IMG/VR virus record: IMGVR_UViG_3300047552_001072
Span: 1 to 64,000 of that record
DNA length: 64,000 bases
Reading direction: 5' to 3' (one strand)
Source: a virus
Shown: one piece after another, positions 20,697 to 47,100 of the stretch
Position numbering within the stretch: the first letter of the stretch is position 1
Layout: the number at the start of each line of letters is the position of its first letter
Notes under the pieces: generated by a model
What the model was told of the DNA's origin: nothing
The model's input: the letters and a program-made list of their open reading frames with translations, nothing else
Databases searched by the model: none
Position numbers and translations under genes: made by a program

Positions 20697-20698
20697 AT

Positions 20699-23322: not shown

Positions 23323-26300
23323 ATGGCAGGACCAAACAAACCACTTCCAAAACCAGAGCCCTACTTAAAAGGTAGAACCTGGATAGTGCCAAGATCAAGA
23401 GTAGTTCTTGATATGATGGAAGAGCATGGTACAAAAGACCCTAATGATGCGGAAAGATGGTCGAATCTGTTGCAAAGAGACCCAGCATACGAAAGTGATG
23501 TTGCGCCTACTATGCGAGAGGGTAATGAGTATACAGCGGAAGATTTCTCCGATCTTCTTACAACAGAACAAAAAGCTTATGGCTTTAGAGGAGATAGAAG
23601 TTACTTAGAAGAGCAAAGAGCTCAAGATCAAAGTAACATAGGCAGATTAATGAGTGGAGTAGGTAGATTTATTCCAGGTACTCTTATTAAAACTGCACAA
23701 GGTATTAATACATCAGCATCATGGTTATATGATTCCTATAATTATTATTTAGGTTCAGGGGAAGACACTAAAACTAGATTTACTGGAACAAGTACACAAG
23801 CATTAGATGATGCTCAAAAAGCAGTTAATGAATTCTTTCCTGTATTTCAAAGACAGTCTTATAAAGATTCTGGATTGTTAGGAACATTAACTAGTTCAGA
23901 ATTTTGGGCTGAAGATATGAATGAAGGAGTTCAATTCTTAGCTTCAATGGGGCTGACTGGAAATGTACTTACAAAAGTACTGGGTGCAGGTAAACTTGGA
24001 ACAACAGGTGCAGCTGTATTGCCAGCAATAGCAGAGGCAGGAGTAGAATCTAAAGGTACATATGAAGCAATTAAGGCTTCATTGCCTGGTGAGAAAAACC
24101 CTCGTACTGGAAAAGAGTTTACTGGTGAGGAAATTGAACAGTTGGCAACAGAGGCAGCTAATAGAGTATTTAATGCTAACGTTGCATTGCATTCAGTTAC
24201 TAATGGTATTCAATTATTTACCTTATCTAACTCTGCTTTTACAAAGAACATAGATAGAATAAGAAAAGATATTGTTGCAGGTAAGACAAGTGCAGAAACA
24301 ATTAAAGCAGGTAGAAGTGCCTTAGCTAATGGTTCTCTTGCTGCTATATCTGAGGGTTTTGGTGAGGAAAATATTCAAACATCTATAAGTATGTTTGAGG
24401 AAGATCTAGCTAAAGAAGGTATATCTGAATTTGATGGTACAGGTTATTTTAATAAATGGCTTGATGGTGTAGTAGGATTTGGTAAAGCAGCTTTAGGTCA
24501 AGATATATCTCAAGATCAAAAAGAACAAATGAAAGCTATCTTAGCAGGTAGTTTAATTGGTGGTGCTCCAGGTGCTGTATCAGGATATAAAGAAGCAGGA
24601 AAACAAAAGGTATTATACGAAACATTAAATGAAGACTTTAAGCGTTTTGTAAAAGATCATGATATTGCAGGAAAGAATTTCTTTGGGGATAGAAACTCAG
24701 TCTATAAACAATTTGAAACAGAAGTAGATGAACTAGATTCTGAAGGTAAACCTACAGGAAAGAAAGTTATTAAGAAAGGAATTATCAATCCAATTACAAA
24801 TGAACCTGAAATAGATTTGGATGTAGCTAGAAAAATGTGGTATCAAACTGTCTGGGATAAGAAAGTATTTGATAGACAAATAGCTCTTACAATGGATGGT
24901 GATTCTCGTCTAGGTACATTTAATAAACATATTGCATTAGCTGGATTAGCTTATCAATATGATAAATTATATACCTCTGATGGTTGGAGTAAAGTAGGTG
25001 AAAAGGCTTTAGAAGAAAGATTAAACAAAGAACCTAATCAAGAGTTAACTGAAGATGAAAGAAAAGAACTTACTCAAATGAAGAGTCAAGTTAAATCTTA
25101 TCAAGATCTTTGGAAAACAATTAACTCTAAATACACATCTAAAGACGAGTTGTCTACTGATAAAGAAGTGGCTGGATTTGCTAAACATTTTAAAGATGTA
25201 ATGTTTTATGAGCATGTTAAATTACGTGCTTATGAAGATATGAAGACTAATCAAAATTTGAGTAAGAAAGATCTAGAATCATTAGATACTATGATTGAGG
25301 ATACTCAAAACTTTATTGAGAAGTTAGAAAATGAGAGAAGTTCTTTTAAAGAGTTTTACACCCAACAATTGAATCCAGTACTAGGTCAAGTTGAAAAGAT
25401 TCAAGCATTACAATCTCAAATAGATAAATCAGAAGATCCTCAAAGAACTGTAGAGTTAATGAATGAGAAACTTAATGAAGAATTTATCTTAGGCGAGACT
25501 CAATATATTAATAGTGAATTTAATACAGCAACAACCTCTACAGCTAGACAAGATGCTTCTAAATTAAAGTTTGGTTCAAGAGATAATGTTCTTTATGAGA
25601 TGGGAATGTCTTATAAGACAGAACTTGATATTAAAGAAAGAGTAGAAGATTTACAAAGCTTAAAAGAAACTTTAGATAAATCAAAAGCAGAGAATGGTTA
25701 TGATCAACAGTTAGAAGATGACTATAGTAAGAAACAAGCAGACTTATTAAACTTCTTTTCATCTAAGAAAGGAGTTGTTAATGAAGAGACTGCTAACTTA
25801 GTTCAACAAGTTATTGAGGAAATCAATTCAGATAATAAATTATTATCAGAACAAATTAATGAATTAAAAAATAACTATCAAAATTCTATTAATGAAATAG
25901 CTAGAATTGAAGAAACTAGTGACGTTGATAAAGGAGCAGCAGATAGAATCAACGATACATTAGATTCATTATATGATACCCTAGCACCTATAGCTGATCA
26001 GAATGAAGAAGTATCTAGAATATTAGAACTTAATTCGGATGCTACTCAAAGGAATAAGCAAGATATGCTTAGTGCATTAGCACAGGCTATTCAAGATAAC
26101 GGAGAAACTAATCCAGATGAATTAGAGAATGCATTAGATAGTGCTATTGATAGAGCAGGTGGAGAGTATATCCAAGATTCATTAGACAAAAAATTTGAAT
26201 ATTTATCTCAACTATTAGAACAAGAAGCTACTATTGATCCTGAAACTAATAGACAAATACAAGTTGAAGTTGCTAAACAAAATACTTTAGATCAAGAAAT

Positions 26301-29300
26301 TCAATCTAAAGAAAAACAGTTACAAGCTAAACAAGCTTTGACTAAAGATTCTATTAATAGAGCTTATACTAATTTAGATAAAGGAGTTAATAATAGAGAT
26401 AATATTATACGTGATAAAGTTAGTAGCCGTTTACATAAAAATAATTCTTATGGTAGAATTGATCATTCTTTACGAATAGAATATACTGAGAATTATTTAG
26501 ATCAAGTAGATGCACAACAGCAAGCATACGAAGCTGATAAAAGTTTTTATAATGAATTAGATACATTAAATAAACTTAAATCAACTTTATTATCTGCAGA
26601 GGCTGTATGGGTTAGTAGAGCAGAAGTTGTATGGAGCAGTCCAGAAAATAATTCTATAGTTAAATCTATAGAAGAAGCATTAGATAAATTAGATCAACTA
26701 ATTGCAGTATCTAAAGAGAATGCAGGTACTAGAGAAAAGATGCTTAAAGAATTTGAGACTAAAGAAGCTGATCAACTATTGGATTCTATAGGATTAAATC
26801 CTGATAGTAGTGTTAAAGATGATTTAATGTTTTCAATGATATTAGAAGTAGTACCAAATGCTACAGAGATTATTGATGCAGCCAAATCAAACATAGAAAA
26901 ATCAGCAGCAGTTAGAGTTGTTATTGATTTATTTAAAATGAATTCTTCTGATGTTCAAAAGGAAAGAATAAAGGAGAAATTAGAAAACGATAGAAAAGTA
27001 AAAGTTGCACAGATTGAGAAAGAACTATCTATTCAAGAAGTACTTTCTAGTCAAGCATATTACACAACACCTGTAGGTTTATTTAGAGATGTATTAATGG
27101 CTAAGGCTATTGAGATTCTTAAAGTAAAGTATACAGGAGAAAAAGAAGGTAAGAATCCTTTATTTATATTTGCAGAAACAGCAGACTTAAATGAATTAGA
27201 AAAAAATATATCTAATTCTAAAGAACTAAATAATTCTGATAAAGATCAAATTAACACATTAATTAGATTACATAAAGAATACTTATCAATATTTAATACA
27301 GTTACTTTATTTAACTCATCTGACTTGTTTTATAAAAATCATGAACAAGAAACAAAGATATTAAATGAATTATCTGATAAAAAAATATTTGAGGTTCCTA
27401 CAAGTGAACAATTACCAATCATTAGAACATTATTAAGATTTCTTAAAATACCTGTAAGTGGACAAGATAGAGGATCACTTAGTTCTATGTGGTCATTCTT
27501 AGCTGGACCAGCAGGTGCAGGTAAAACAAGAATTGTACTTAGTTGGTTAAGTAAGCTTTATGGAGTACCTAAAGAAAAGATTTATGCTTTCTCACATAAT
27601 GATAGTACTAGTCAAGGTATTGCAGACTCTATTAATGGTAAGAAAGGTTCTGCTTCAGAATTTATGACTACTCTAGAATTAGATAAGTTTGATCTTATAG
27701 TAATAGATGAGTTACCATTCTTTATGAATCCTCAAATAAAAGAATTTGAACAAAGAGTATTTGAACATAACAAAACAAGAAAAGATAATCCACTTAGAGT
27801 AGTTGCTTTAGGTGACCCAGGACAAATTAGAAAAGATAGAGGAGCTACAATATCTACTCACTCTGTTCTAACTAATATGAATTATTCTGATCCATTGGTA
27901 TTAACCTTTAGATCTAATGTTCCTTCTATTGTAAACTTGATGAATCAATTTAGAAGAAGAACATCAATAGTTAGTGGATTAAAAGTACAGTCTAATGTAA
28001 TATTTGGTACCAAATTTGATACGAAAGAGCCTACGATAGGTGTACATGCAGGTAAAGTAAAAGATGAGCTTATTGCCGCTTTAAATGCGAATAAAGATTC
28101 AGGTAGATCTAAGGTTATTGTTGTTAATACACAAGAAGATAAACTTAAATATACAAGTGCAGTTGAGAAAACCCCAGTACTAACATATGATGAAGTACAA
28201 GGTATGACATTTGATGAAGTATATGTAGACCTTCAAAGAACAGGAAAAGATCTTAGAGGAGAGGTATTCTCTAATAAGAAAAATGATTTAGAATTTAATA
28301 CAGCCATGTATACAGCAGTATCACGTGCGAGAAACTATGTATTCGTATTAGATCCTACAATGGAAAACTTATTTCCTGATAAAGCTTTAGCAGTTGATAC
28401 TAATAAATTATCTGAACAAAGTAGAGATAACTTTGAGAAGTTAGGTCATAGATTAGATACTGAAAGACAATTAATATCTAAATATATTAAAGAATACAAA
28501 CCTGAAGATATTAAGAAAGAGAAACCTAAAGATGAAAAACATTTAGATACTGGAGATAATATTGAAATAGAAGAAGATCCAGATGGAGAAATTACTCCTG
28601 AATTAGGTGTTGATCCAGTAGAAACTATTGGAGTAAAACAATCTGATACAGATCCAGATTCTGACTTAATGACTCAAGAAGAAGAAATTAGAGACATTAA
28701 AGAAGAGGCTAAAGGAGATAATGTTAAAGGTACTATTATTACTCCACCTATATTAGATGATACTGTTATTGATAAGGACGGTAATTTCTTTTATAAGATA
28801 TTATACCCAACTAATTCTCAACTTAAAAAGAATCCTAAAACTAAAGTACCTGATGTATTGCCTCAAGGTGTAACATTATCAAATGGGGTTATTACAGATT
28901 CAAGTCCAGTAGTGATGGCTGTTACCTATGATGGATCTATACTGGTACTAGGTCAAGTACAACAAAATGGTGTATTCACTAATAGATGGAAACAACTAGG
29001 AGTAATATCTGAAAAAGATAAAGAAAGTACATTCTATCAAAAGTTTGCTAGAGATAATGAATATAAAGCTACTAAAAATGGAGATTATATTAGATATAAT
29101 GAAGATACTGGAGAGCTAATGAATATTAGTCCTGTGTATGATTCTAATGGAAGATACGTATCTAATGGAGGAAATAATGCTTTTATACTCTCTGGTACAA
29201 TTATTGAATCTAATCCTGTAACTTATACATTCAAGGAAGAACCTACACATAAAGGTTTTATTAATGAAGTATTAGATAAATTTAGAAAAGGATTTAATGT

Positions 29301-32300
29301 TAAAGGAGTTAAGTATTCTATTAAAATATATGATAGAAAAACTTTAGCAGATGATACTGAAGTTCAAGCTTCAGGATTTAGACCTAAACCAGGTGTTCCT
29401 TATTTAGTTATAAGTAATCCTAAAGGCGATGGTCAAGTAGAAACAAGAACTCAATTTATTAGATTAACTCCTAGAAAACTAAATAAAGGAGATATATCTG
29501 AGAATGGATTCTTACATCCTCTAAGAAAGTTATATGAAGCTGTAAGAGAGTTAGGTACTCAAATATATCCTGATAATCCGAATAAGGTACTAGGTAATAC
29601 TGTAGTCAATAGCTTAATCATGAAAATGGCTAATGCTAAAGATAATAAGGGTGAAAGAGCATTTCAATTAAATGAAGATGGTAAAGTAATTCTTAATAGA
29701 CATATTTACACTTATAAAGATTATTTAGATGGAGTATCTAAGGGTTATAAAGAATTTGTAGGAGAAGGAGCTGATAAGATATCTGAAGAACAATTTGATA
29801 AAATTAAATTAGCTGCAGAAAAAATTATTCCTTTATACTATGGCAAACGATATAAGAAAGTTGAATTAACATTTGATACAATAGAAGAAGCTACTCAGTA
29901 CGCAGAGTCAATTAAAGACTCAGGTAAAATATTGTTTAAAGCTAAAATAGATGAAGACAGTAAACATCCTGACAATCTCTATTATGTTAAACATGTTAAA
30001 CAAAGTAAGAATGATAAAGATGTATTTGATGTAGAAATGTATCTTGCTGCTGGTGCTGGAGAAGCTCAGAAAGTAATGAATCAACTAGCTCAAGCAAATA
30101 CACAATTTAAGTTTAGAAAGATTGTAACTAAGGATAAGAAGAAGATTGCTACTTCAAAATCTATTATGTCTACTTCATTATCTAAAGAAGCCTATAGAAA
30201 TTCATTAGCTAAAATTCTTGAAGATGTTTATAAAGATAAACAAACTAAGAATGGGGAAGCTATTGATCAAAAAGTAATAAACAAACTTAGAGGAGGTAGT
30301 TTAAAATATCTTGAGAATTATATTCAAAAGAGGGGAATAGACAGAGCTTCATTAGATGTTTTAATGAATGAAGAAGCAATTCATCCTATTACTTTAGCAG
30401 ACTTAGAGACTGTAGTAGGAGATACAGCATTTAAAGATAATGAACATAGATTTGTAGAAGGAGGATATCTCGCTTTACCTTTAGGTATGATTTCAGTTAA
30501 CTATCATGGAGCTAACTTAGATAAACAAGAAAGTGTAGATAAGATAGAATCGATGATGGGTTCTAAATTAGATGAAGTTAAAGGTGGTACTGTTGTTATT
30601 GGTAAGATAGGTGACACCATTAGTACTAAAAAAGAAATAGTAGAAGAAAAACCTTTACAAGAAACATCTTTTAGATCTTCAGAAAGAGAAATTACAGAAT
30701 ATGATAATTCAATAGAAAGATTAACTAATAATATTAATGAAGTTAATTCTACAGAAGATGAAGGAGAATTAAGTAATAAGTTTAGTCAATATGAAAAAGA
30801 ATTAAATGAATTAAGAGATATTGATACTATTACTTATAATGAAATACTTGAATTACAAAACCAAGGAAAAAATAAAGAAGCTTTAGATCAATTACTTAAT
30901 TCTATTAAGAATCTTAGAGAAAATGAAGTTGTAGTTGATTTAGAACCTGAAGTTATTCAAGAGTCAGAATTAACTCAAGAAGAGTTTGTATATGATGATA
31001 ATAAATACTTTATAAAAGATAATAAATTTTATAGAGAAGATAGTCTATTGGATTCTATTGAAGAGATTACAGAAGAAGAATATAATGCTGCTAAGATAGA
31101 TAAAGATCGTAGATACTTTACTGTAGAAGATACTCAAGATCTAGGAAAAGAATTAACAATAGATGAAGCTGTTAAAGTAGCTAAGAAGATACTACCTAAA
31201 TTAAAAATAGGTAACCAAAGCTGGTTAAAGGCTAAGTTATTCTCATTCTTAAATATACCAATATCTAATGAAGTTGAATTAAAATTCTTAGATAAATTAG
31301 AATTCGAAGCTATATCAGGAAGAAAAGATTCACTTGGTATTTATATTGATGGCACTATCTATTTATTAAAAGATAATAAAGGTGGTATTAGAGAAGGTGT
31401 GTTACGACATGAGTTAATGCATAAAGTATACTGGGAATATCTAACAGCTAGAGATAGATCTGCTATTAGACGTTCTGCTCGTAGATCTGACCCTAGTACT
31501 GAGAAAATGAGTACCGTCGAGTTTGAAGAATGGTTATCGAATAGATTTATGTCTTACAAAGATAATCAATTCAATGAACAAGGTAGAATAAAACAATTCT
31601 TTTCAAATATATATAGACTTCTTAAATTCATTACAGGAAATGTAACTGAAATTAATGATTTATTTAACTTAGTTGATAAAGGATACTATAGAAAAAATAT
31701 GGCTGACTTCTCAAGAAGTATCAGACGTAATTATGTAGATATAAAAAATAACTTTGAAAGTGCTGCAATATTTAAAGAATCAGTATTTGCTGTTCAATCA
31801 CACTTCTCTTCTTTACTAGACATTAATCCAAAAGATCCTAATAAGAAAGTATATACGTATAATGAAGCGTATCATGCTACCAAGGATTCTATGCTTAACT
31901 TAAAGAATAGAAAAGAAAAAGACTTGGTTAAATATAACGAAGCTCTTCAAAAAGCTATTACAGATAATGATGCAGATAAACAACAAAAAATCTTAGCAGC
32001 TATTGAAAAGCTTGAAAAAGATTTAGTTGTATTTAGAACTCTATTTGATGGAAAAAGTAATAAGAACTATGACATAGTAACTTTATATTTATTCCCTGAT
32101 GGATTTACTAAACAACATTATTCATCTATCAAAAGAAAAATATCTGAAGAAGATATTAATGATATAATAGAACTTGACTCAGAAACATTATCAGATGATT
32201 TAGAGATTGTTAACTTAAATGATGTTATTGCAGAATCTAAGCATATAGATAATGAGGCTAAACAAAGTAGTGCAGTTAAATTATTACTATCTAATATCAA

Positions 32301-35300
32301 AGATCCTGCAACAGGAGAATGGATTATTCCCCGTGTAGCTTTTGCTAAATGTTTGAAATTTATGGAATCTATTTCTTTTGAAGTAGAAGTTATTAAAGAC
32401 AAAACAGGAGCAATTAGAAAAGTAGGATTCTTACAAAGATTTAAAGAGTCTATTGCTAAGTCAGCAGGATTAGATAGTAAAGCAGATATTTCTGGAGCAG
32501 GAGCTATATATTTAGTTTATAAAAAAATTAAAGAATACTATGAGTCAGCTTTAATGCCAGAGTATAATGATTATAATGGAACTACATTTACTCAAAAAAG
32601 AAGATTGCCAAAAGGTATATTCTTTTTAAATCCTGATGTACTTATAGTAGCAAGAGATTTTACTGAAGATGTAGATTATAAAGGATTAACATATGATCAA
32701 CTAAATGCCAAAGTAGTACAAGGTAAGGTATTTGTTTTCCATAGAAAAGATGCTGAACAATTACTTATTAAAAACTCTCTTGAAGCAGATAAGAAAAAAG
32801 TAAATGTAAGTACTGAAAAAGTTGTAGAAGCTTTTGAAGCCATTATAAGAAGTAAAATTAACCAAGGATTAATTAAAGGATTTCCAGAGAATGCTAATAA
32901 CTTAGCTAGAATTTCTATGATTAGAGAAGCTTGGAGATCTGAACAATCTAAAAATGCTTTAGCAGAATTCTACAGTTTATTCTCATCTATGATGGAAGAC
33001 CACATGATGTTAGCTAAGTATGATGTATTTGAAAATAGAACAACGTATATAAGAGCAGGTGCTAATTCAAATTCATTATCTGTTAAATCAGATATTGAAC
33101 AAGGTATTATCAGTAAGATAACTTTGATAGCTGAGGGGTTAAAAGGAGATTATCAGAAAGCATATAAAGCTTTTATTGGAGGCACACCTGGAAAAGGTCA
33201 CATGACTTGGAGTGAGATAGAATCTAAATTAAGTAGTACTTCATCTAGTGATGCTGTTCAAGGAATAAAAGATTTTCTTAACTTTATTGGTATTGTTATT
33301 AACGCTAATGAATTAAGTCTAAAAGATCCATTTAAAACAGCTGAAGACATTAAGTTTTTTGTAGAAGAACATATGTCAACTGTAGGTACATTTAAACCTG
33401 CACCGATAAACTCTATTCCTAAAGAAGAGAAAGATGCGCTGTCTGATGATGAGATTGCAGAATTATCTGTTCAACAAGAGATAACTATTTATGATGTCAT
33501 AGAAGAACAAGGTTCTTTGATAGGAAGATTAGCAACTGACATCTCATCTAGTACTCGGTGGGTTAGACCAAATTCTGTAAAAGATAGTTCTAAAAATACA
33601 GTATTCTTATTTCATAACTCTACTCAAGCTAATGATACTTTAATAGCTGTAGCTAAAGTATTTAAAGAAAGATTTAAAGGCGGTGGTGGAACATTGCGTA
33701 ATGTTAAGTTACCTGAATATCTAAAACATAAAATCTATACTAAAGGTAATATCTTTGCTAAAGGCATTAACCATATTCACGATACCTATGAACATGATGG
33801 TACAATAGATGTAGTAAATGATAAGGCTACCTCTTACATGAGAGAATCTAAATCTAAGTTTTTCTCAAGAGTACTTAATGCTAGTATGGCATTTATGATT
33901 AACGGTTCTAGAGAAGGTAATCCAAGATATATTCAATGGGTATACACTATTTCTAATAAACCAAGGATTACAGGTGCGGGAGTTGATTTTCTTTCTCCTA
34001 AACAAATTAAAGAAGCCTTAGGTACATATTTAATAAAAGTAAGTTTAAGACCTGATTTAAGTAATTTAATTAAAAATCATAAGAAGTATAAAAATACTAA
34101 TTTTGAAATATTAGATACTGTACTAGGTGGAAACTCTAATATGGCAGATGCTATATCGAAAGCGGTTATTAATGAAACACTAACTAAATATGGGGAGGAG
34201 TTAGTTAATGAAATGTACGATGAATTAACAAAACTATCTAGAGAATTTGCAGAAGAATTAGCTTATGATCAATTTAAGTTTGATGCTAGGTTTATGAAAG
34301 CACATAAAAAACTTAAAGCAGAAGGTAAGTTGGATTCTAATATACCTGGTACATTAAAAGTGGACCATAAAGATGAGGTTAAGAATTTTGATGCATCAAG
34401 AAAATATAATCACACTGTAGATGAGATTCATGGTACAGTAGATATGATGTTTAAGAATATGTATGTTAACTCATACTTTTTAGTAGATTTATTAGCAGGT
34501 GATGCAAGTTTCTTTAGTAATGCTTTAGATTTGGTTAAACGTATGTCAGGGGTATTTGCTCCAGGTATGAAAGGTTTAGTACACCCAGAACTTGGTATGA
34601 AGAAAAAATATCGTACTGCATGTATATCTGATATAGTAGAAGGTAAAGATTCAATAGCTGAATCAGTATCTATGATGCTTCTTAATAAACCATATACTGA
34701 ACTTAATTCAGATCAATTAAAAGAAGTTGATAAAATATTAGCTTTATTTGGTAGTAGTTATAAACCTACAGATGGTCAGGCATTTATGTTACCTGAAATG
34801 GCTGCTGAAATTGAAAAAGGTTTTGGTAGAGCATTTAAAGCAGGACATATCTTTAAAGCAGCTCATTATGAGAATGCTACAAAGAAAATAACTGATCCTG
34901 ACGGTAATGAAATAGAAGTTCTTATTCCAGTAATGGATAAATATTCTATTGTAAATTTATCTGATGATCTTTGTAATAGATTTCCTTTATTAGGAAATTT
35001 AAGAAGAAATATGCGAATGAATGGTAAAGGTCAAGAGCCTATATATTTAGTAACATTTGCTTCTGCTAGAAAAGTTGGAGGACCAGTTAAACCTACTGAT
35101 AGTAAACAATTACTACAAGATAATGGAACATTTACTAAAGATTCAATTATAGAATTGAGTTTTGAGAATCTTCGTATGCAATCTAATCCTGATCATATCA
35201 CTTTTGATAGTGAGAAAGGAGTAGCTAATCCATCTCAGTTGGGTTATATGATTTTGTTACAACAACATCTATTAGCAGAAGGAGATAGAACAGCAAAAGT

Positions 35301-38300
35301 AATTCATGAGTATACTGCAAAATTAATTGAAAAAGGTTTAGGTAAATTTAAAAGAAGAATAACTGATGAAGATGGTAAGCTATCTTTAACTAAGTTATCT
35401 AAATATATATTTGAAGCAATGTCTGGAAAAGGTAATGAACGTTATCAAGAACTTCTTGGTGAAGGTGTTTCATTCCAAGCTCCTTATATTGTTAATAAAG
35501 CATTAACACAAATAGCTGCAGACGTAACTAAATCTTCTGTAGGATTCAGATTACCTGGTGAAAAGCTTATTTTACAAACAGACTTTGGTATTGAAGTAAA
35601 TAAAAAGAATAAAGCTCTTAGAGAAAAATTAAAGTTTAACCAAAGTGAAGATAAAGGTCACTTAGAAGCTGAAGTAATTTTCCCTGAAGGAGTTTTACCA
35701 AGAGAAGTAGAAGACTCTATTAAAGAGATGCTTAAAACTGGAAAGAGATTCTTCACCACTTCTGATATGTTAGGTTTCCGTATTCCTTCTACAGAGTTAC
35801 ACTCTGCTGTAGCAATTAAGATTGCAGGATTCTATGACTCTCGAGGTACAAATGCTATTATCGCACCTAAAGAACTTGTAGTATTACATGGATCTGACTT
35901 TGACGTTGACTCCTTGTTTATGCTTGTTAGATCTTTCTATAAACCAGAAGAAGCAGAATTATTTGGGTACGAGGCAAGTTCACCAATAGGCTATGAGTTA
36001 GTTAATAAAGAATATCATCCAATAGCTAAGGATAAATTTGAAAAGATCATATCTGAATTAAAAGAACAATATAAAGAGGATAAAAAGAAATTAAAGCTTA
36101 TAGATAAAGTAGAAGATAAATATTATACCAATGTTATTACTCAAGGTTTTATAGATATGATTCTTAAACCTGAGAATAGATCTCGTATGGTCGAACCTAT
36201 TAGTATGGAAATATTTAATGGTGATGGTGAAGATACTATGTTTACTATGTTAAAAGATCTTCAACAAAGACGTTATAAACATATTCATGGTGATAAAGCT
36301 ACCAAAGAAGGAATAGAAGAAGCAGGTGAGGTACAACAAAGACCTGATTTAAGTAATCCTTCAGGTAATTATAAAGTATTTAAGTCGTCTATGGACGGAG
36401 CTGCACTTGTAGGTGTATTTGCTAATGGTTTTAAATCATTAGCTTATATGTTAAACTCTGGTGATTATGGTAATAATACTGTAGCAGTTAAAAAAGAACT
36501 TAAGAAATTAAAAGAAGCTAAAAAAGTACAGGAGACTTTACTGTCAAATGTTAATGAAGAACTTCGTAAACTTGACCCTAGTACTAATCCTGAATCGGTT
36601 AAACAACGTGAGAAAAAACGTGACGAGTTATTAAGTATTCTTAAAGAAACTGAAAGAACTATAGAAGAACTTACTGCTAAATCTAAAACTTCTAAAGATG
36701 AAAAATCAACTACTCCTTTCTTAAATGTACCCGCTATTAAATTAGGTGGTAAGATATTTGATAGAATTAGAGAATTTGAAGTAGGTAAAGACGGGTGGCC
36801 AGTATGGAGAACACTAGATGCTTTAGTTAACTCAGCGATAGATAACGTTAAAGAACAAATTCTTCCAACTATTAATGCCTCTGGATTAACCTCTAATGCT
36901 TATGTAGCTTTAATAGGACTTGGTGTTCCTTTAAGAACAACTGTACTATTAATGAGACAACCTGCAATAGAACAAATGAGTTCTACTGGATTTAAGACTT
37001 CTGAAATCAATAAGAAAAAAGAAGCTTTAGAAGAAATGTTTAAAGCTATTTCTCAAGAAGATTTAGAATTATTACCTATATATGCTCAACAAGAACAATT
37101 AACAGATCTTGATTTAGAAGATGCTTTTATAAAAGATTTAATCGATTTTAGAGCATACGATAATGGTGATATGGATAAAGCATTTAAAGATGTTATTGAT
37201 CCTGAACATTCTATTGTAAGACAGTACGCAATATTATTAGAAGTAGAAAAAGCTATGAATATTGGAGAAGATATTTCTACAATGAGTTCTGCTTTAAATA
37301 TCATTAGACAATTTCCAAGTAATAAAGCAGACATGTCTACTACCCAAGAAAAATGGGAAGAGATGTTTGATTTTAAGGAAGACGAAGTAAAAATGAGAGA
37401 TTCATTCTCTTTTGATATTCCTGCATTGTTTAATAATAATCCACACATTAAATTAGCATATGAAGCATTTAAGTACTTGGTAGATTCTATTGAAACAATG
37501 TTTCTTAAACACGATAAGGCTTTAACTAAATTAGCTACTGAAATAGTTAAGACTTCTAATATGTCTATTGGTACTAAGAATGAAACAATAGAAACAGTTA
37601 AAAGTGACTTTGTTAAATTTATAGCTTCTGGTATTCCATTAATGGAAAAAATTAATTTAAGATTAACTAAAGAATATAGAACTGCTACAGGAGTAAAAGA
37701 TTATACTACTGGAGCTGAAGCTTGGTCACAAGCATTCTTAGATAAGTTAGAAGATGTTAAATTATTTTTAAAAGCACATAACATTTCTAATGGATTTATA
37801 GAAAATATTGCTATTAGACCAGGAAGATTTGATACAAGGTACGCACAATTTACTGCAGGTAATAATTTGAAGTTAGAAGATTTCTTATTATTCCAAGAGG
37901 ATTTTGTAAAATTAAATAGAGTAAATATAGATGATAAAGGTAATATTACATATAGTTATACGCCTAATGTTGGTTATACAGAATTTCAACAAGACTTTGT
38001 AAGATATGCAATCTTAAACTTTGGTTTACAATTTGGATCTACAAACTATTCTACTTCTTTACCTCCAGATATTGTTAAACCTTATATGGATGAGTTAGAT
38101 GCAGAATTAAAAGAAGCATTAACTAAATTAGATGTATATAAAGAATTATTTGAAGTTCAAGAGGTAATTGAAAGAGGTAATAATGTTGGAGAAACTCGTA
38201 AGAAACCAACAAGAGTTGAAGTAGCTCAAGGTACTTGGAGAAGTGCAGCATATGATAAAGCTTATGGTATATATTATAATTTAAGATTTGATCTTAAAGG

Positions 38301-41300
38301 TAAAGACACTATGGGTGACTTCTTAAAATTTGGTAAGAATGTATTTAAGAAAATAAAAATAGCTGTAGAATCTGACGAGCAATCTAACTTTCCTGTATTC
38401 TATACTAAGATAGGTACTTTAAAAAGAAGAATAGGATTATTCTTTAGAAAAGAGTTAGCAGAGAAATACTCTACTGCATTAGCTTTTGATAGTTCAATAT
38501 TATCTAGAGCAGTAGCTGATCCTGACAATACAACTAAAGTATCTATTTCTGATAACTACTATAATGATATTAAGACAAAAGACGAACATGGTACTGGGTC
38601 TATCATAATGCTATATCCTACAAATGATGGAGCAAGAATGTATAGAAAGTATTATATGGTAACTAAGAAATTAACTGATCCTAAAGTTAATGAGTATGGT
38701 ATTAATGAAATGGAATTCGAGATAACTCCATTAGAAAATAAAGATTATGAACAATACATTGACTCTAAAGGAGAAGATTATAAATTAGTTAAAAAAGTAT
38801 CTAAGGTAGAATTAAATTATAAAGGTACTAAATCTTCTATTACAACTGCAGATAGAAATAAATTCTTATCTCTTGAGAATGTATTAAAAGATATACAAGT
38901 TAATGGATCTACTGCAGGTAAATTAATGGCTAATTTATTCTTAAGTCCAGAATTCTCTTCAGCTGTAAAAGGATTAACAGTTAGAACTATTAATGTAAAA
39001 GAGACTGATAAAGGAAATGTAATTGGACATTGGGTTAATAATTATCCTAAAGAAATTTCTATTGCTGTGCAATACCCAGATGGAACAAGAGTTTCACCAG
39101 AAATAATTGAATCAACTATAATACATGAATTAACTCATGCTTTAACTTGGTTTAATTTACATACTCCTGATAATAAATTATCAAGAGATCAAGTAAGAGC
39201 TAAAGCTAACTTACATAAACTATTCAAAGTAGCTTCAGAAGCTATGAAGAAAAAATATAAAGATGAGTTTAAAGCTGGTGCAGGTAAATTCTATGGATTT
39301 ACAAATATTGATGAATTTGTTGCAGAAACATTTAGTAATCCTGAGTTCCAGGCTGAATTAGATTCATTTAAAATTGATACAGGTAAGAAATATTCTTTAT
39401 TAACTAAATTTGTAGAGTTCTTCAAAAGATTGCTAGGAGTTGTAGAAAATGATTCTTTACTATCACAGGTATTAAATAACTCATTCTACTTAATAGATAA
39501 TCCTATTAATAAAGGTTCTGTAGTTATAGATACTAATGAGATATTCTATAAGATAGGTAATTCTAAACCTGCAGAAGTTTCTGGAATAACTAAGAATGTA
39601 CTAGAACAAAGTAAGTATATAAATGTAGCTACAGACTCTAATGGAGAACAATTAGACCATTATATTTATTCTATTACAAACAAAGCTTGGAATCGTGTAA
39701 CTGATAACTATACTGGATTTATTTCTAAGTTTGTTAGTACTACTCCTAAGGAAAAGGGATTAACTAGTTCTCAATTAAAAGCTGAAGGAGTATTTAAAGG
39801 TGTACCTAAAGGAACAGCTATTCCAATTGATGGTATTAAAAAAGATCTTACTAAAGAAGAATATATACAATATTTAGATGACTTAAATGCTGTAGGTATT
39901 GCTAAAGGTAAAGTAATGCATAAGTGGCTAGAGTTATTATCTTGGAATAAATACTCTAATAAATCTAAAGAAGATTTAGAAGATGAGTTAGAGGAAGCTT
40001 TAGAGAATGCTCCTGTACCAGATGCTGAAACATCTTATGGATGGATTGAACAAGTTTATGATAAGTTATTAGATAAACTTCAATTAAACTCACATAAGGA
40101 TAATGTGCCAGAGGATCAAAAAGATAAAATATTCTCTGAGGTAACTATAGGTAGTCCACTACTTAAATACGCAGGTACTATGGATATGTTAGTAGAGCAT
40201 AGTGATGGATCTTACTCTATCATAGATTGGAAGACTGGTAGAAGTATTGAAAAAGAAACACATGATGTTCTTATGAAATACGGTAATCAGTTTAATCATA
40301 TGTTTGCTGATCCTAAAACCAAGAACCAATTGCAGGTAATGTTTTATGCATTCATGATGAAAGTAGAAAATCCAGATGCAATTTTTAGAAATTTAGATAT
40401 CATGTGGATTCCTAATAAGTATGAGGCTTTAGCATATGATCCTTATAATAAAGCAAATCATGCTAATTTCTTACGTATGATTGAGCAATACTATAAGTCT
40501 GAAGAACCTAGAATATATGAACAAATACTAGAGAAAAGTCCTAACGCATTTAATCCTAAACATTATAATGCAACAGACCCTACTTTAGCTGGTAGAATGT
40601 TAGCTGAGAATAAAACAGCTGAACAAGTTATTATAGCAACTCAAAATGAATTAAAATGGAAAATCCAAGCTAAATTGGATAAAAGATTATTAACTCATGA
40701 TGATATGCAAGAGATTAAGAAATTAACCCTTGAACTAGTTGCATTTGCTAAACAAGAAGGATATAATATTCAAAACTGGTCAGATGATATCTCTTATGGT
40801 TCTAGATGGTTTGGTATTAATGCAGATGTTAATCATCCTATTGTTAACTTATACCAAGCTAGATTAAATGAAGGATTAGATAAAGCTAATTCTGAGTTTA
40901 CTAGAGATATGGCTAAGTTTAATAGATTAGTTAAAAAAATATCAGAAGATTACGTAGCTAGTAAAATGCCTGGTAAAGGATTCTTACGTAAAGCAACACT
41001 TAAAAAATATGATCCGTTGACTAATGAATTATATGAACCATTCTATACAACATTTACAGAAGATGGTGTAACTTTGGAGAGATTCTTACATAAAAATGAG
41101 AAAGATCCTGAAAAGAAAAAAGCTTATGAGGCTTTAACAAAGAATCAAAAAGAGTTTATAGATTTTGTTAATGAAAGATTTGCATCACCATTTAAAGGAG
41201 ACTCAGCATTCTTAAATAGAACTGCAGTTAAAGATAAACCTAATATGGTTGGTGGTATTGAGATGGGAGTTAAGAATTATTCTGACTTAGAGTTATTTAA

Positions 41301-43266
41301 TCTTAATAAAGATCTAAGAGATAAATTTAATTATTATGAAGGTTTTATTCCTGTTGTAGCTCCTACAAATCAAGACTTAAAAGAAAGGTTTAAAGGAAGA
41401 CCAATGGAGTATATTAGAAATTTATTAAATAAATATTTAACTTTCTCTACTGAATATGACTACGAACAATGGGGAAATAGAGATGAAGCTCTCCCTATCA
41501 AGTATTTAGGTACTAGGTCTCTTCGATCAAATAAAGTATATTCTCGTAATATTGAGAATATGTTTGATAAGTACATGAGATCAATGTACCATAAAAAATA
41601 TTTAGATGATGTACATGCTTTAGCTAAAGGTTTACAATACACTATTCAAATGGCTTCTTATAAAGGAGAGGCTAGTAGAATAAATAAGTATTTAGATGAA
41701 CATATTTCTATGGAGCTATATCATAAAGGAGAAGAACCATTTGATTTAACTTCTAACCCAACATTATCTCCTTTTACTGTAACAGATAAAAGAAACCCAA
41801 ATAGAAAATATGTTAAGAAGATTTCCCCGTTAAAATTATTACAAGCAGCTAGATCTTCTGCAGGTGCGGTATTTATGTGGGTAAAACCTCATAAAGCAGC
41901 CCAAAATGCTGCGATCGCTAGTATGTTTACTATTAAGGAAGGTTTGATGGGAGACTTCATTAAAATGGGTTTAAAAGAGAAAGTTATAGGTACTAATGCT
42001 AGTGTAGTAGATTTTACTACTAAAGATTTAATTAAAGCTTCTGGTATTGTTGCTTCATTTATTGGAGAACAAGTTAAAGGTAATTATCATAACAATAAGT
42101 TATGGAGACTATCTCAAGAGTTCAGATTTGATTCTAACGCTTATGATTTAGCTACTAATTCAAGATACTTAGAAACGTTAAAAACTCAGTTACTATCTCC
42201 TGATGTAGCTTATATGTTACATACTTTACCTGAAGAATATATTTCTAAAGTAACAATGGTAGCTCAAATGCTTAATATGAAGTTTACTACAAAAGAAATG
42301 AACGGTAAATCTATGTGGGATGCGTATGAGATGAAGGTAAATCCTATTACAGGAGAAAGTGAATTAACTTATATAGGACCAACTAGAGGATATCTTAAAG
42401 TAGGAGATAAGCTTGAAAAGATTGGAGGAATAACATCTAAAGAAGCAGCTAGTATGAGACATGTTTATACTAGAATTCAAGGTGGGTATCGTCCAGGAGA
42501 AAGAACTTCTTTTGAATTCTATGCTATTGGACAAGCTATTATTCAGTTTAAAAAACATTTACCACAATTACTTAAAACAAACTTTGGAACATTAAGTTAT
42601 TCAAATGTACTTGGTAGGTATAAACCAGTACCAGGTAATGATGGTAAAATTGTTACAGTTAAAGATGAAAAAGGAAATGATATAACTGTACTTGAATGGC
42701 AACAACGAATAACAGAGGGTAGATGGATTACTTTAGCTGGTTTTATTGGAGAATGGTTAAGACTAAATAGCTTAGTTAAGGGAACTAGATTAGGAAGTTA
42801 TTTATTAAATAATGAGTCCTATGCTTGGGATAATCTTTCCCCAGAACAGAAAAAGAATATACTAGAGGCTGGAGCAGTATTATCTTCTCTTATGTCATTC
42901 TGGTTATTATATGGGTGGGCCTTTGGAGAAGAAGAAGAAAAAAATTCTTTAAAACGTATGGGAGCTTATATTTTAGATACATATTCTCAAAATTATAATC
43001 CAGTAGACATGGTTAAGAACATAACTTCTTTCCCATCATCTGCAGCAGGTACTAGGTTGTATAAAACACTAGATGCTGGTAATGACATGGCGTGGTCTTT
43101 ATGGGCCTCTACAGGGTATTCACCATTTAATGCACCAGACGATGCTTGGACAACTGAGGGAGATTTAAAAGGTTGGAATGAAATTCAAAGAGGTATAAGA
43201 GGATTATCTTCTTATTATGAAACAAAAAAATGGTTAGATGATTTAGACTTAGAAGATTCTGAGTAA
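23323..43266 (+). CDS. Giant virion polyprotein: SF1 helicase, two zincins, RNA polymerase, PD-(D/E)XK nuclease
   Basis: A single uninterrupted frame of 6,647 residues. In order: hydrophobic, Gly/Ala-rich stretches (about 107-130, 200-245, 405-425) that may interact with membrane; coiled coils (about 545-1250); an SF1 helicase with Walker A GPAGAGKT (1395-1402), Walker B DE (1462-1463), GDPGQ (1497-1501), QGMTF (1626 on) and VSRAR (1666-1670); a zincin with HELMH (2696-2700); the RNA polymerase with ENLRMQSNP near 3950 and the metal-binding DFDVD at 4192-4196; a second zincin HELTH (5268-5272) with DEFVAE (5330-5335); a RecB-type PD-(D/E)XK nuclease with E5606, D5621 and D5635-W-K5637; and a C-terminal region with a hydrophobic stretch near 6515-6535. 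Family knowledge says the crAss-like polymerase is packaged in the virion and transcribes early genes after ejection. I infer that the whole polyprotein is packaged, and possibly cleaved by its own zincins. It is much larger than the roughly 2,200-residue polymerase of phage phi14:2. Confidence 0.85.
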   Translation: MAGPNKPLPKPEPYLKGRTWIVPRSRVVLDMMEEHGTKDPNDAERWSNLLQRDPAYESDVAPTMREGNEYTAEDFSDLLTTEQKAYGFRGDRSYLEEQRAQDQSNIGRLMSGVGRFIPGTLIKTAQGINTSASWLYDSYNYYLGSGEDTKTRFTGTSTQALDDAQKAVNEFFPVFQRQSYKDSGLLGTLTSSEFWAEDMNEGVQFLASMGLTGNVLTKVLGAGKLGTTGAAVLPAIAEAGVESKGTYEAIKASLPGEKNPRTGKEFTGEEIEQLATEAANRVFNANVALHSVTNGIQLFTLSNSAFTKNIDRIRKDIVAGKTSAETIKAGRSALANGSLAAISEGFGEENIQTSISMFEEDLAKEGISEFDGTGYFNKWLDGVVGFGKAALGQDISQDQKEQMKAILAGSLIGGAPGAVSGYKEAGKQKVLYETLNEDFKRFVKDHDIAGKNFFGDRNSVYKQFETEVDELDSEGKPTGKKVIKKGIINPITNEPEIDLDVARKMWYQTVWDKKVFDRQIALTMDGDSRLGTFNKHIALAGLAYQYDKLYTSDGWSKVGEKALEERLNKEPNQELTEDERKELTQMKSQVKSYQDLWKTINSKYTSKDELSTDKEVAGFAKHFKDVMFYEHVKLRAYEDMKTNQNLSKKDLESLDTMIEDTQNFIEKLENERSSFKEFYTQQLNPVLGQVEKIQALQSQIDKSEDPQRTVELMNEKLNEEFILGETQYINSEFNTATTSTARQDASKLKFGSRDNVLYEMGMSYKTELDIKERVEDLQSLKETLDKSKAENGYDQQLEDDYSKKQADLLNFFSSKKGVVNEETANLVQQVIEEINSDNKLLSEQINELKNNYQNSINEIARIEETSDVDKGAADRINDTLDSLYDTLAPIADQNEEVSRILELNSDATQRNKQDMLSALAQAIQDNGETNPDELENALDSAIDRAGGEYIQDSLDKKFEYLSQLLEQEATIDPETNRQIQVEVAKQNTLDQEIQSKEKQLQAKQALTKDSINRAYTNLDKGVNNRDNIIRDKVSSRLHKNNSYGRIDHSLRIEYTENYLDQVDAQQQAYEADKSFYNELDTLNKLKSTLLSAEAVWVSRAEVVWSSPENNSIVKSIEEALDKLDQLIAVSKENAGTREKMLKEFETKEADQLLDSIGLNPDSSVKDDLMFSMILEVVPNATEIIDAAKSNIEKSAAVRVVIDLFKMNSSDVQKERIKEKLENDRKVKVAQIEKELSIQEVLSSQAYYTTPVGLFRDVLMAKAIEILKVKYTGEKEGKNPLFIFAETADLNELEKNISNSKELNNSDKDQINTLIRLHKEYLSIFNTVTLFNSSDLFYKNHEQETKILNELSDKKIFEVPTSEQLPIIRTLLRFLKIPVSGQDRGSLSSMWSFLAGPAGAGKTRIVLSWLSKLYGVPKEKIYAFSHNDSTSQGIADSINGKKGSASEFMTTLELDKFDLIVIDELPFFMNPQIKEFEQRVFEHNKTRKDNPLRVVALGDPGQIRKDRGATISTHSVLTNMNYSDPLVLTFRSNVPSIVNLMNQFRRRTSIVSGLKVQSNVIFGTKFDTKEPTIGVHAGKVKDELIAALNANKDSGRSKVIVVNTQEDKLKYTSAVEKTPVLTYDEVQGMTFDEVYVDLQRTGKDLRGEVFSNKKNDLEFNTAMYTAVSRARNYVFVLDPTMENLFPDKALAVDTNKLSEQSRDNFEKLGHRLDTERQLISKYIKEYKPEDIKKEKPKDEKHLDTGDNIEIEEDPDGEITPELGVDPVETIGVKQSDTDPDSDLMTQEEEIRDIKEEAKGDNVKGTIITPPILDDTVIDKDGNFFYKILYPTNSQLKKNPKTKVPDVLPQGVTLSNGVITDSSPVVMAVTYDGSILVLGQVQQNGVFTNRWKQLGVISEKDKESTFYQKFARDNEYKATKNGDYIRYNEDTGELMNISPVYDSNGRYVSNGGNNAFILSGTIIESNPVTYTFKEEPTHKGFINEVLDKFRKGFNVKGVKYSIKIYDRKTLADDTEVQASGFRPKPGVPYLVISNPKGDGQVETRTQFIRLTPRKLNKGDISENGFLHPLRKLYEAVRELGTQIYPDNPNKVLGNTVVNSLIMKMANAKDNKGERAFQLNEDGKVILNRHIYTYKDYLDGVSKGYKEFVGEGADKISEEQFDKIKLAAEKIIPLYYGKRYKKVELTFDTIEEATQYAESIKDSGKILFKAKIDEDSKHPDNLYYVKHVKQSKNDKDVFDVEMYLAAGAGEAQKVMNQLAQANTQFKFRKIVTKDKKKIATSKSIMSTSLSKEAYRNSLAKILEDVYKDKQTKNGEAIDQKVINKLRGGSLKYLENYIQKRGIDRASLDVLMNEEAIHPITLADLETVVGDTAFKDNEHRFVEGGYLALPLGMISVNYHGANLDKQESVDKIESMMGSKLDEVKGGTVVIGKIGDTISTKKEIVEEKPLQETSFRSSEREITEYDNSIERLTNNINEVNSTEDEGELSNKFSQYEKELNELRDIDTITYNEILELQNQGKNKEALDQLLNSIKNLRENEVVVDLEPEVIQESELTQEEFVYDDNKYFIKDNKFYREDSLLDSIEEITEEEYNAAKIDKDRRYFTVEDTQDLGKELTIDEAVKVAKKILPKLKIGNQSWLKAKLFSFLNIPISNEVELKFLDKLEFEAISGRKDSLGIYIDGTIYLLKDNKGGIREGVLRHELMHKVYWEYLTARDRSAIRRSARRSDPSTEKMSTVEFEEWLSNRFMSYKDNQFNEQGRIKQFFSNIYRLLKFITGNVTEINDLFNLVDKGYYRKNMADFSRSIRRNYVDIKNNFESAAIFKESVFAVQSHFSSLLDINPKDPNKKVYTYNEAYHATKDSMLNLKNRKEKDLVKYNEALQKAITDNDADKQQKILAAIEKLEKDLVVFRTLFDGKSNKNYDIVTLYLFPDGFTKQHYSSIKRKISEEDINDIIELDSETLSDDLEIVNLNDVIAESKHIDNEAKQSSAVKLLLSNIKDPATGEWIIPRVAFAKCLKFMESISFEVEVIKDKTGAIRKVGFLQRFKESIAKSAGLDSKADISGAGAIYLVYKKIKEYYESALMPEYNDYNGTTFTQKRRLPKGIFFLNPDVLIVARDFTEDVDYKGLTYDQLNAKVVQGKVFVFHRKDAEQLLIKNSLEADKKKVNVSTEKVVEAFEAIIRSKINQGLIKGFPENANNLARISMIREAWRSEQSKNALAEFYSLFSSMMEDHMMLAKYDVFENRTTYIRAGANSNSLSVKSDIEQGIISKITLIAEGLKGDYQKAYKAFIGGTPGKGHMTWSEIESKLSSTSSSDAVQGIKDFLNFIGIVINANELSLKDPFKTAEDIKFFVEEHMSTVGTFKPAPINSIPKEEKDALSDDEIAELSVQQEITIYDVIEEQGSLIGRLATDISSSTRWVRPNSVKDSSKNTVFLFHNSTQANDTLIAVAKVFKERFKGGGGTLRNVKLPEYLKHKIYTKGNIFAKGINHIHDTYEHDGTIDVVNDKATSYMRESKSKFFSRVLNASMAFMINGSREGNPRYIQWVYTISNKPRITGAGVDFLSPKQIKEALGTYLIKVSLRPDLSNLIKNHKKYKNTNFEILDTVLGGNSNMADAISKAVINETLTKYGEELVNEMYDELTKLSREFAEELAYDQFKFDARFMKAHKKLKAEGKLDSNIPGTLKVDHKDEVKNFDASRKYNHTVDEIHGTVDMMFKNMYVNSYFLVDLLAGDASFFSNALDLVKRMSGVFAPGMKGLVHPELGMKKKYRTACISDIVEGKDSIAESVSMMLLNKPYTELNSDQLKEVDKILALFGSSYKPTDGQAFMLPEMAAEIEKGFGRAFKAGHIFKAAHYENATKKITDPDGNEIEVLIPVMDKYSIVNLSDDLCNRFPLLGNLRRNMRMNGKGQEPIYLVTFASARKVGGPVKPTDSKQLLQDNGTFTKDSIIELSFENLRMQSNPDHITFDSEKGVANPSQLGYMILLQQHLLAEGDRTAKVIHEYTAKLIEKGLGKFKRRITDEDGKLSLTKLSKYIFEAMSGKGNERYQELLGEGVSFQAPYIVNKALTQIAADVTKSSVGFRLPGEKLILQTDFGIEVNKKNKALREKLKFNQSEDKGHLEAEVIFPEGVLPREVEDSIKEMLKTGKRFFTTSDMLGFRIPSTELHSAVAIKIAGFYDSRGTNAIIAPKELVVLHGSDFDVDSLFMLVRSFYKPEEAELFGYEASSPIGYELVNKEYHPIAKDKFEKIISELKEQYKEDKKKLKLIDKVEDKYYTNVITQGFIDMILKPENRSRMVEPISMEIFNGDGEDTMFTMLKDLQQRRYKHIHGDKATKEGIEEAGEVQQRPDLSNPSGNYKVFKSSMDGAALVGVFANGFKSLAYMLNSGDYGNNTVAVKKELKKLKEAKKVQETLLSNVNEELRKLDPSTNPESVKQREKKRDELLSILKETERTIEELTAKSKTSKDEKSTTPFLNVPAIKLGGKIFDRIREFEVGKDGWPVWRTLDALVNSAIDNVKEQILPTINASGLTSNAYVALIGLGVPLRTTVLLMRQPAIEQMSSTGFKTSEINKKKEALEEMFKAISQEDLELLPIYAQQEQLTDLDLEDAFIKDLIDFRAYDNGDMDKAFKDVIDPEHSIVRQYAILLEVEKAMNIGEDISTMSSALNIIRQFPSNKADMSTTQEKWEEMFDFKEDEVKMRDSFSFDIPALFNNNPHIKLAYEAFKYLVDSIETMFLKHDKALTKLATEIVKTSNMSIGTKNETIETVKSDFVKFIASGIPLMEKINLRLTKEYRTATGVKDYTTGAEAWSQAFLDKLEDVKLFLKAHNISNGFIENIAIRPGRFDTRYAQFTAGNNLKLEDFLLFQEDFVKLNRVNIDDKGNITYSYTPNVGYTEFQQDFVRYAILNFGLQFGSTNYSTSLPPDIVKPYMDELDAELKEALTKLDVYKELFEVQEVIERGNNVGETRKKPTRVEVAQGTWRSAAYDKAYGIYYNLRFDLKGKDTMGDFLKFGKNVFKKIKIAVESDEQSNFPVFYTKIGTLKRRIGLFFRKELAEKYSTALAFDSSILSRAVADPDNTTKVSISDNYYNDIKTKDEHGTGSIIMLYPTNDGARMYRKYYMVTKKLTDPKVNEYGINEMEFEITPLENKDYEQYIDSKGEDYKLVKKVSKVELNYKGTKSSITTADRNKFLSLENVLKDIQVNGSTAGKLMANLFLSPEFSSAVKGLTVRTINVKETDKGNVIGHWVNNYPKEISIAVQYPDGTRVSPEIIESTIIHELTHALTWFNLHTPDNKLSRDQVRAKANLHKLFKVASEAMKKKYKDEFKAGAGKFYGFTNIDEFVAETFSNPEFQAELDSFKIDTGKKYSLLTKFVEFFKRLLGVVENDSLLSQVLNNSFYLIDNPINKGSVVIDTNEIFYKIGNSKPAEVSGITKNVLEQSKYINVATDSNGEQLDHYIYSITNKAWNRVTDNYTGFISKFVSTTPKEKGLTSSQLKAEGVFKGVPKGTAIPIDGIKKDLTKEEYIQYLDDLNAVGIAKGKVMHKWLELLSWNKYSNKSKEDLEDELEEALENAPVPDAETSYGWIEQVYDKLLDKLQLNSHKDNVPEDQKDKIFSEVTIGSPLLKYAGTMDMLVEHSDGSYSIIDWKTGRSIEKETHDVLMKYGNQFNHMFADPKTKNQLQVMFYAFMMKVENPDAIFRNLDIMWIPNKYEALAYDPYNKANHANFLRMIEQYYKSEEPRIYEQILEKSPNAFNPKHYNATDPTLAGRMLAENKTAEQVIIATQNELKWKIQAKLDKRLLTHDDMQEIKKLTLELVAFAKQEGYNIQNWSDDISYGSRWFGINADVNHPIVNLYQARLNEGLDKANSEFTRDMAKFNRLVKKISEDYVASKMPGKGFLRKATLKKYDPLTNELYEPFYTTFTEDGVTLERFLHKNEKDPEKKKAYEALTKNQKEFIDFVNERFASPFKGDSAFLNRTAVKDKPNMVGGIEMGVKNYSDLELFNLNKDLRDKFNYYEGFIPVVAPTNQDLKERFKGRPMEYIRNLLNKYLTFSTEYDYEQWGNRDEALPIKYLGTRSLRSNKVYSRNIENMFDKYMRSMYHKKYLDDVHALAKGLQYTIQMASYKGEASRINKYLDEHISMELYHKGEEPFDLTSNPTLSPFTVTDKRNPNRKYVKKISPLKLLQAARSSAGAVFMWVKPHKAAQNAAIASMFTIKEGLMGDFIKMGLKEKVIGTNASVVDFTTKDLIKASGIVASFIGEQVKGNYHNNKLWRLSQEFRFDSNAYDLATNSRYLETLKTQLLSPDVAYMLHTLPEEYISKVTMVAQMLNMKFTTKEMNGKSMWDAYEMKVNPITGESELTYIGPTRGYLKVGDKLEKIGGITSKEAASMRHVYTRIQGGYRPGERTSFEFYAIGQAIIQFKKHLPQLLKTNFGTLSYSNVLGRYKPVPGNDGKIVTVKDEKGNDITVLEWQQRITEGRWITLAGFIGEWLRLNSLVKGTRLGSYLLNNESYAWDNLSPEQKKNILEAGAVLSSLMSFWLLYGWAFGEEEEKNSLKRMGAYILDTYSQNYNPVDMVKNITSFPSSAAGTRLYKTLDAGNDMAWSLWASTGYSPFNAPDDAWTTEGDLKGWNEIQRGIRGLSSYYETKKWLDDLDLEDSE

Positions 43267-43283
43267 TAATCCAAAAGGAAAAA

Positions 43284-43320: not shown

Positions 43321-43323
43321 TTA

Positions 43324-47098: not shown

Positions 47099-47100
47099 TA

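What the first reader, a model, noticed from the sequence alone, without database searches (positions are those of the whole stretch)
23323..43266. A 6,647-residue single-frame polyprotein joins five enzyme domains
No in-frame stop interrupts almost 20 kb. Helicase, zincin, RNA polymerase, zincin and nuclease motifs occur in order with membrane-active-looking ends. Large crAss-like polymerase proteins are known, but this one is about three times the phi14:2 polymerase. Inference: a complete toolkit (helicase, polymerase, nuclease) is injected as one chain or as its processed pieces.
Basis: partly seen in the sequence, partly recalled or inferred. Interest (0 to 1): 0.75.

Follow-up and report, generated by a model that had tools for sequence, protein, structure and literature searches.

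The report
Fused crAss-type virion polymerase with helicase
A phage gene of almost 20,000 bases encodes one 6,647-residue protein in which the polymerase and helper proteins that crAss-like phages normally carry as two or three separate virion proteins are fused into one chain, with an extra DNA/RNA helicase built in; relatives show that the fusion is real, not an assembly error, but the basic design was already known.

Summary
23323-43266 is one open frame of 6,647 codons with no in-frame stop, and helicase, zincin, RNA polymerase, zincin and nuclease motifs occur in that order. It is not an assembly fusion: a second contig repeats the last 40% exactly, and nine other divergent phage contigs carry complete single-frame versions (6,033-6,679 aa). 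It is the crAss-like 'transcription block' in one chain. The N-terminal module matches phi14:2 g067 and PhiCrAss001 gp47; the polymerase matches phi14:2 gp66 (its only PDB hit, 6VR4, E=3e-40) and gp50; the zincin-2/C-terminal part matches g065 and gp49. The homologous block totals 5.4-6.6 kaa elsewhere, so the size is ordinary; the single chain and an SF1 (Pif1/RecD-like) helicase are what differ. The helicase runs through a clade of relatives and is absent from every known crAss block compared. Catalytic motifs of helicase, zincin-1, polymerase and RecB-type nuclease are conserved in all 13 fused chains aligned; zincin-2's HExxH is lost in one. Joined and separate forms alternate at least seven times on the tree. 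Virion packaging and injection follow by homology. Cleavage by the embedded zincins is plausible but untested; my one correlation test was not significant.

The parts
23323..43266 (+). single ORF, 6,647 aa, fused crAss-type transcription block
   Evidence: complete single-ORF relatives
23590..25482 (+). residues 90-720, N-terminal cargo module
   Evidence: profile matches phi14:2 g067 66-698 (E 3e-52), PhiCrAss001 gp47 (9e-9), cr53_1 gp57 (2e-9)
25480..26502 (+). residues 720-1060, poorly conserved region
   Evidence: low conservation and occupancy in the 13-chain alignment
27340..28452 (+). residues 1340-1710, SF1 helicase (Pif1/RecD/Dda-like)
   Evidence: Pfam Viral_helicase1 3e-7 and AAA_30 in all 11 relatives scanned; profile vs PDB PIF1/RecD/Dda 1e-6 to 1e-4; invariant GxGK, DE, GDxxQ, R, SRA motifs
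31180..31902 (+). residues 2620-2860, zincin-1, HExxH at 31408-31422, third ligand E2736
   Evidence: H2696 E2697 H2700 E2736 invariant; matches PhiCrAss001 gp47 C-term, cr4_1, cr53_1, cr55_1; model and fold comparison
33520..38652 (+). residues 3400-5110, two-barrel RNA polymerase module, DFDVD at 35896-35910
   Evidence: profile vs PDB: sole hit 6VR4 (phi14:2 RNAP) E 3e-40; PhiCrAss001 gp50, phi14:2 g066, Fpv3 gp32
38860..39522 (+). residues 5180-5400, zincin-2, HExxH at 39124-39138
   Evidence: phi14:2 g065, cr4_1 gp27, cr55_1 gp071, Fpv3 gp32; homologous to zincin-1 by hhalign E 8e-7
39640..40602 (+). residues 5440-5760, RecB-type PD-(D/E)XK nuclease
   Evidence: Pfam PF12705 5e-9, PHROG 298 exonuclease 5e-11; H5533, D5621, D5635, K5637 conserved with a QxxxY-like motif
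40600..43263 (+). residues 5760-6647, C-terminal cargo module; weak hydrophobic segment at 42859-42915
   Evidence: Ct2 matches phi14:2 g065 1045-1405 (2e-20) and PhiCrAss001 gp49 (2e-15); hydrophobicity
13976..18238 (+). 1,420 aa virion protein, Fpv3 gp29-like, at the PhiCrAss001 gp44 position; context
   Evidence: phmmer E 1e-93 to Fpv3 gp29; PHROG 15100
18240..23296 (+). two genes (818 and 865 aa) at the position of cargo proteins C1/C2; context
   Evidence: gene order as in phi14:2, PhiCrAss001 and Fpv3; no sequence match found; Gly/Ala-rich hydrophobic stretch in the 818-aa protein

Best explanation
The ORF is the virion 'transcription block' of a crAss-like phage translated as one chain, in a clade that has also built an SF1 helicase into it. 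Likely working: the chain is made late with the other virion proteins and packed in the head; it passes through the tail into the host with or before the DNA; it refolds; and the two-barrel RNA polymerase transcribes early genes without host RNA polymerase. I infer that the helicase opens or pulls in the incoming DNA so that the polymerase, for which no sigma-like partner is known, has an accessible template, and that the RecB-type nuclease acts on host or phage DNA ends. Zincin-1, and usually zincin-2, probably cut the chain or host proteins after or before delivery. Shown here: domain content, order, homology, conservation of catalytic residues, reality of the fusion. Inferred from relatives: packaging, injection, transcription. 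Inferred without direct test: roles of helicase, nuclease and zincins, and whether the mature form is one chain or several.
For: Colinear profile matches to phi14:2 g067-g066-g065 and PhiCrAss001 gp47-gp50-gp49. RNAP profile hits only 6VR4 in the PDB, E 3e-40. Same gene position: after the large tail protein and two cargo-position genes, before an opposite-strand replication block. Relatives' proteins are virion components. Nine other complete single-ORF chains with the same domain order, plus a >=5,874-aa chain in a separately assembled metagenome bin (L119). Catalytic residues of helicase, zincin-1, RNAP and nuclease conserved across 13 divergent fused chains. One relative carries an intein-like insert exactly in the helicase P-loop, a site inteins favour when it is essential (the preference is general knowledge).
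Against: No proteomics of this phage. Virion packaging rests on homologues. The helicase has no counterpart in any experimentally studied virion compared here, so its delivery is inferred only from covalent linkage. Structure predictions were weak (C-terminal module pLDDT 60; zincin-1 pLDDT 68).
Confidence: 0.85

Rival explanations
1. True self-processing polyprotein: zincin-1 and zincin-2 cut the chain at module borders, giving about the same set of mature proteins as in phages with separate genes.
For: Module borders are the points where related genomes have separate genes: before zincin-1, and between RNAP and zincin-2. Fused and separate states interchange at least 7 times, so the modules work unlinked. 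Zincin-1 HExxH is present in all 38 clade loci checked, some near-duplicates. Iyer et al. 2017 (PMC5512222) proposed zincin processing of such proteins.
Against: Zincin-1 is kept equally in split genomes. Zincin-2 HExxH is present in 13 of 15 fused and 15 of 24 split loci, Fisher p=0.15; one complete fused chain (L024) lacks it. Fpv3's 4,287-aa chain has no zincin-1 HExxH.
Confidence: 0.45
2. The chain stays intact, works as one tethered helicase-polymerase-nuclease machine, and the zincins act on host proteins.
For: Zincin-1 is kept irrespective of fusion; zincins are the commonest domain of polyvalent proteins, and roles other than self-processing are possible.
Against: Repeated fission shows that tethering is not needed; a folded chain this size must be threaded through a tail.
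Confidence: 0.35
3. Assembly or sequencing artefact joining separate genes.
For: The record is a metagenome contig, linear and probably incomplete.
Against: Second identical contig for the last 40%; nine divergent complete single-ORF relatives; no composition break.
Confidence: 0.01
4. A tape-measure or structural protein with decayed enzyme domains.
For: P23-45 has a vRNAP fused to its 5,002-aa tape measure (PMC10770324).
Against: Catalytic residues of helicase, zincin-1, RNAP and nuclease are conserved across highly diverged chains (~20-35% identity); crAss-like phages are short-tailed (PMC10136315).
Confidence: 0.04

Closest known systems
Cellulophaga phage phi14:2 g067-g066-g065 (Crassvirales, Steigviridae), gp66 structure 6VR4
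   Same: same module order; RNAP homologous over 776 profile positions; virion proteins by MS/MS annotation
   Different: three genes, no helicase, no zincin-1 HExxH, no nuclease match
PhiCrAss001 gp47, gp50, gp49
   Same: N-module plus zincin-1, RNAP, C-terminal module; all detected in virions
   Different: three genes, gp49/gp50 on the opposite strand from gp47; no helicase, no zincin-2 HExxH, no nuclease match
Suoliviridae cr53_1 gp57/gp56, cr4_1 gp26/gp27, cr55_1 gp070/gp071
   Same: N-module, zincin-1 and RNAP already fused (4.5-4.6 kaa); zincin-2, C-module (and nuclease in cr4_1, cr55_1) in a second protein
   Different: two genes; cr53_1 and cr4_1 recode TAG; no helicase
Flavobacterium phage Fpv3 gp32/gp33 (Fipvunavirus)
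   Same: closest major capsid protein (27%); 4,287-aa RNAP chain that includes zincin-2
   Different: two genes, split after zincin-2; no helicase or nuclease match, no zincin-1 HExxH
N4 virion RNAP, P23-45 tape-measure vRNAP, 'polyvalent proteins' (Iyer 2017)
   Same: injected giant multidomain proteins joining polymerase and zincin
   Different: N4 polymerase is T7-type; P23-45 is tail-tape fused; no such helicase/nuclease combination found in the texts read

Membership tests
crAss-like virion RNA polymerase block | two-barrel RNAP with DxDxD homologous to phi14:2 gp66 | tested here: met
   sole PDB hit 6VR4 E 3e-40, DFDVD aligned
crAss-like virion RNA polymerase block | flanking modules homologous to g067/gp47 and g065/gp49 | tested here: met
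crAss-like virion RNA polymerase block | gene position between structural block and opposite-strand replication block | tested here: met
crAss-like virion RNA polymerase block | present in virions and active on phage DNA | not testable with these tools
   only homologues studied
order Crassvirales | crAss-type major capsid protein and structural genes | tested here: inconclusive
   MCP PHROG 11589 1e-69; best database records are Fipvunavirus (27%), many crAss-like records also match
order Crassvirales | TerL, portal and IHF placement | not tested
   no large ORF fits terminase or portal upstream of the MCP; the record is probably cut at its left end; IHF not searched
SF1 helicase | motifs I, II, III, IV, VI | tested here: met
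   activity not testable
zincin metallopeptidases | HExxH plus distal Glu | tested here: met
   zincin-1 in all 13 chains, zincin-2 in 12 of 13
zincin metallopeptidases | zincin fold | tested here: inconclusive
   AF2 model pLDDT 68; Foldseek no significant hit; VIA top rows mostly zincin-type chains (PPEP, lethal factor), Z about 6, under the 8 that would count
RecB-type PD-(D/E)XK nucleases | H, D, DxK and QxxxY motifs | tested here: met
   Q position variable
self-processing polyprotein | cleavage into mature products by its own peptidase | not testable with these tools
   indirect correlation test not significant, p=0.15

The most novel reading that the evidence does not exclude
The phage injects a single covalent helicase-polymerase-nuclease chain in which the SF1 helicase unwinds or reels in the incoming genome as template for the linked polymerase, and the chain is then cut by its own zincins: an injected, self-processing transcription-initiation machine.
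Probability: 0.2. Interest if true: 0.8.

Novelty: new variant of a known kind. Interest (0 to 1): 0.5.

Why it matters
Giant virion RNA polymerases are a known hallmark of crAss-like phages; the 2023 review speaks of up to ~6,000 aa (PMC10136315). New here are a helicase fixed in that cargo across a whole clade of metagenomic phages, the complete one-chain form in many members, and repeated fusion and fission of the same modules. This gives natural pairs (for example L036 fused, L040 split) for asking whether linkage matters, whether zincins process the chain, and how a polymerase with no known sigma-like partner gets its template.

Tried and rejected
Single-sequence searches for relatives were nearly useless: N-terminal 2,600 aa no phage hit, helicase none, PDB none. 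Only a profile built on the RNAP core opened the family. AlphaFold of the C-terminal module was too poor to search. Fold comparison of zincin-1 was only suggestive; Pfam recognised neither zincin. Linking zincin-2 loss to gene splitting gave p=0.15. A first tree attempt failed on alignment time and was redone with hmmalign; Fpv3 sits there on a long branch, so its place is unsure. The count of helicase changes on the tree (8) is inflated by truncated loci and not used. Host assignment through MAG contigs was inconsistent and not used. Papers by Yutin 2018 and Drobysheva 2021 are not held, and Fig. 3 of Yutin 2021 cannot be seen, so a helicase in a block there cannot be ruled out.

Full report
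Observation. Window 23323-43266 (+) is one ATG-to-TAA frame of 6,647 aa. Other frames are full of stops, codon-position composition is even along it, and the chance of such an open frame at this composition is about 1e-273. The source is a 76,953-bp linear IMG/VR record.

Is the fusion real? Contig L003 (IMGVR_UViG_3300042988_001631) matches 35305-47121 with no mismatch and a single indel, at 43439, beyond the stop. An RNAP-core profile (A1) found 80 loci in IMG/VR, of 348 confirmed. Fetching upstream ends gave nine complete single-frame chains besides the window's: 6393, 6045, 6148, 6033 (with TGA read as an amino acid), 6121, 6679, 6366, 6166 and 6105 aa, all with the same domain order. L024, the recoded one, lacks the zincin-2 HExxH. 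A tenth, G007, is single-frame to within the C-terminal module. A separately assembled metagenome bin has a chain of at least 5,874 aa (L119). An assembly fusion is excluded.

What it is. Profiles made from the 13 fused chains match known crAss blocks colinearly. N-module: phi14:2 g067 (3e-52), PhiCrAss001 gp47. Zincin-1: gp47 C-terminus, cr4_1, cr53_1, cr55_1. RNAP: phi14:2 g066, PhiCrAss001 gp50, Fpv3 gp32. Zincin-2: phi14:2 g065, cr4_1 gp27, Fpv3 gp32. Nuclease: cr4_1 gp27, cr55_1 gp071. C-module: g065, gp49, Fpv3 gp33. The RNAP profile has one PDB hit, 6VR4, the phi14:2 polymerase, E 3e-40. Summed block sizes are 5,398 (phi14:2), 6,102 (PhiCrAss001), 5,883 (Fpv3), 6,294-6,558 (cr4_1, cr53_1, cr55_1) and 6,647 aa here, so the total length is ordinary.

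What differs. An SF1 helicase (residues about 1340-1710; Pif1/RecD/Dda-like) is present throughout the clade where the region is covered, but has no counterpart in phi14:2, PhiCrAss001, cr53_1, cr4_1, cr55_1 or Fpv3. One locus placed inside the clade with wide coverage, L062, lacks it. In one relative (L018) an intein-like insert of about 270 residues sits exactly in the P-loop. The nuclease has the RecB-type motifs. The two zincins are homologous to each other (hhalign E 8e-7).

Fusion and fission. Within the clade the block occurs as one gene, as two genes split between RNAP and zincin-2, as two split before zincin-1, or as three. On the RNAP tree joined and separate states need at least seven changes. 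L036 (joined) and L040 (split by an overlapping TAATG) are sisters.

Does it cut itself? Zincin-1 HExxH is present in all 38 clade loci where the region is covered, joined or split. Zincin-2 HExxH is present in 13 of 15 joined and 15 of 24 split loci, Fisher p=0.15, not corrected for relatedness. Zincin-1 is therefore needed for something that does not depend on fusion, and zincin-2 is dispensable in at least one complete fused chain. Processing remains open; I give it 0.45 against 0.35 for an intact chain.

Delivery. phi14:2 g065-g067 carry annotations based on virion MS/MS, and PhiCrAss001 gp47/49/50 were found in virions (PMC10172136). By homology the chain is very likely virion cargo. Hydrophobic segments near 6513-6536 recur in most complete chains; those near 200-225 and 405-423 recur in some relatives but are below threshold in the window protein; values are marginal.

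Known or new. [quoted passage not shown] PMC7886860), and a PDDEXK domain in these proteins was noted (PMC7886860). Zincin processing of injected multidomain proteins was proposed in 2017 (PMC5512222). In the papers I could read I did not find a helicase in this cargo or a complete one-chain block. I therefore call it a new variant of a known kind.

Noticed in passing
L018 (G003), helicase P-loop: intein-like insert of about 270 residues (starts CLSGDVLL, ends FIVHN before T, HNH-like HHKDENPINDDLDN) placed exactly inside Walker A
   Followed up: partly
L024 (G008); also L035, L063, L065: these relatives need TGA read as an amino acid to open the giant frame
   Followed up: partly
L050, L052-L054: RNAP frame broken between the DxDxD core and the next domain, with intervening sequence: intron-like or frameshifted
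   Followed up: no
window 49099-53558 and 58226-59047 (-): cluster of amidoligase, glutamine amidotransferase, ATP-grasp and COOH-NH2 ligase genes, suggesting a peptide-ligation pathway carried by the phage
   Followed up: no
window 1-2000: no large ORF that would fit TerL or portal lies upstream of the major capsid gene, and the record's other end holds almost only minus-strand genes; the contig is probably cut at its left end
   Followed up: partly
window 47101-48120 (-): second PD-(D/E)XK / exonuclease VIII-like nuclease in the replication block
   Followed up: no
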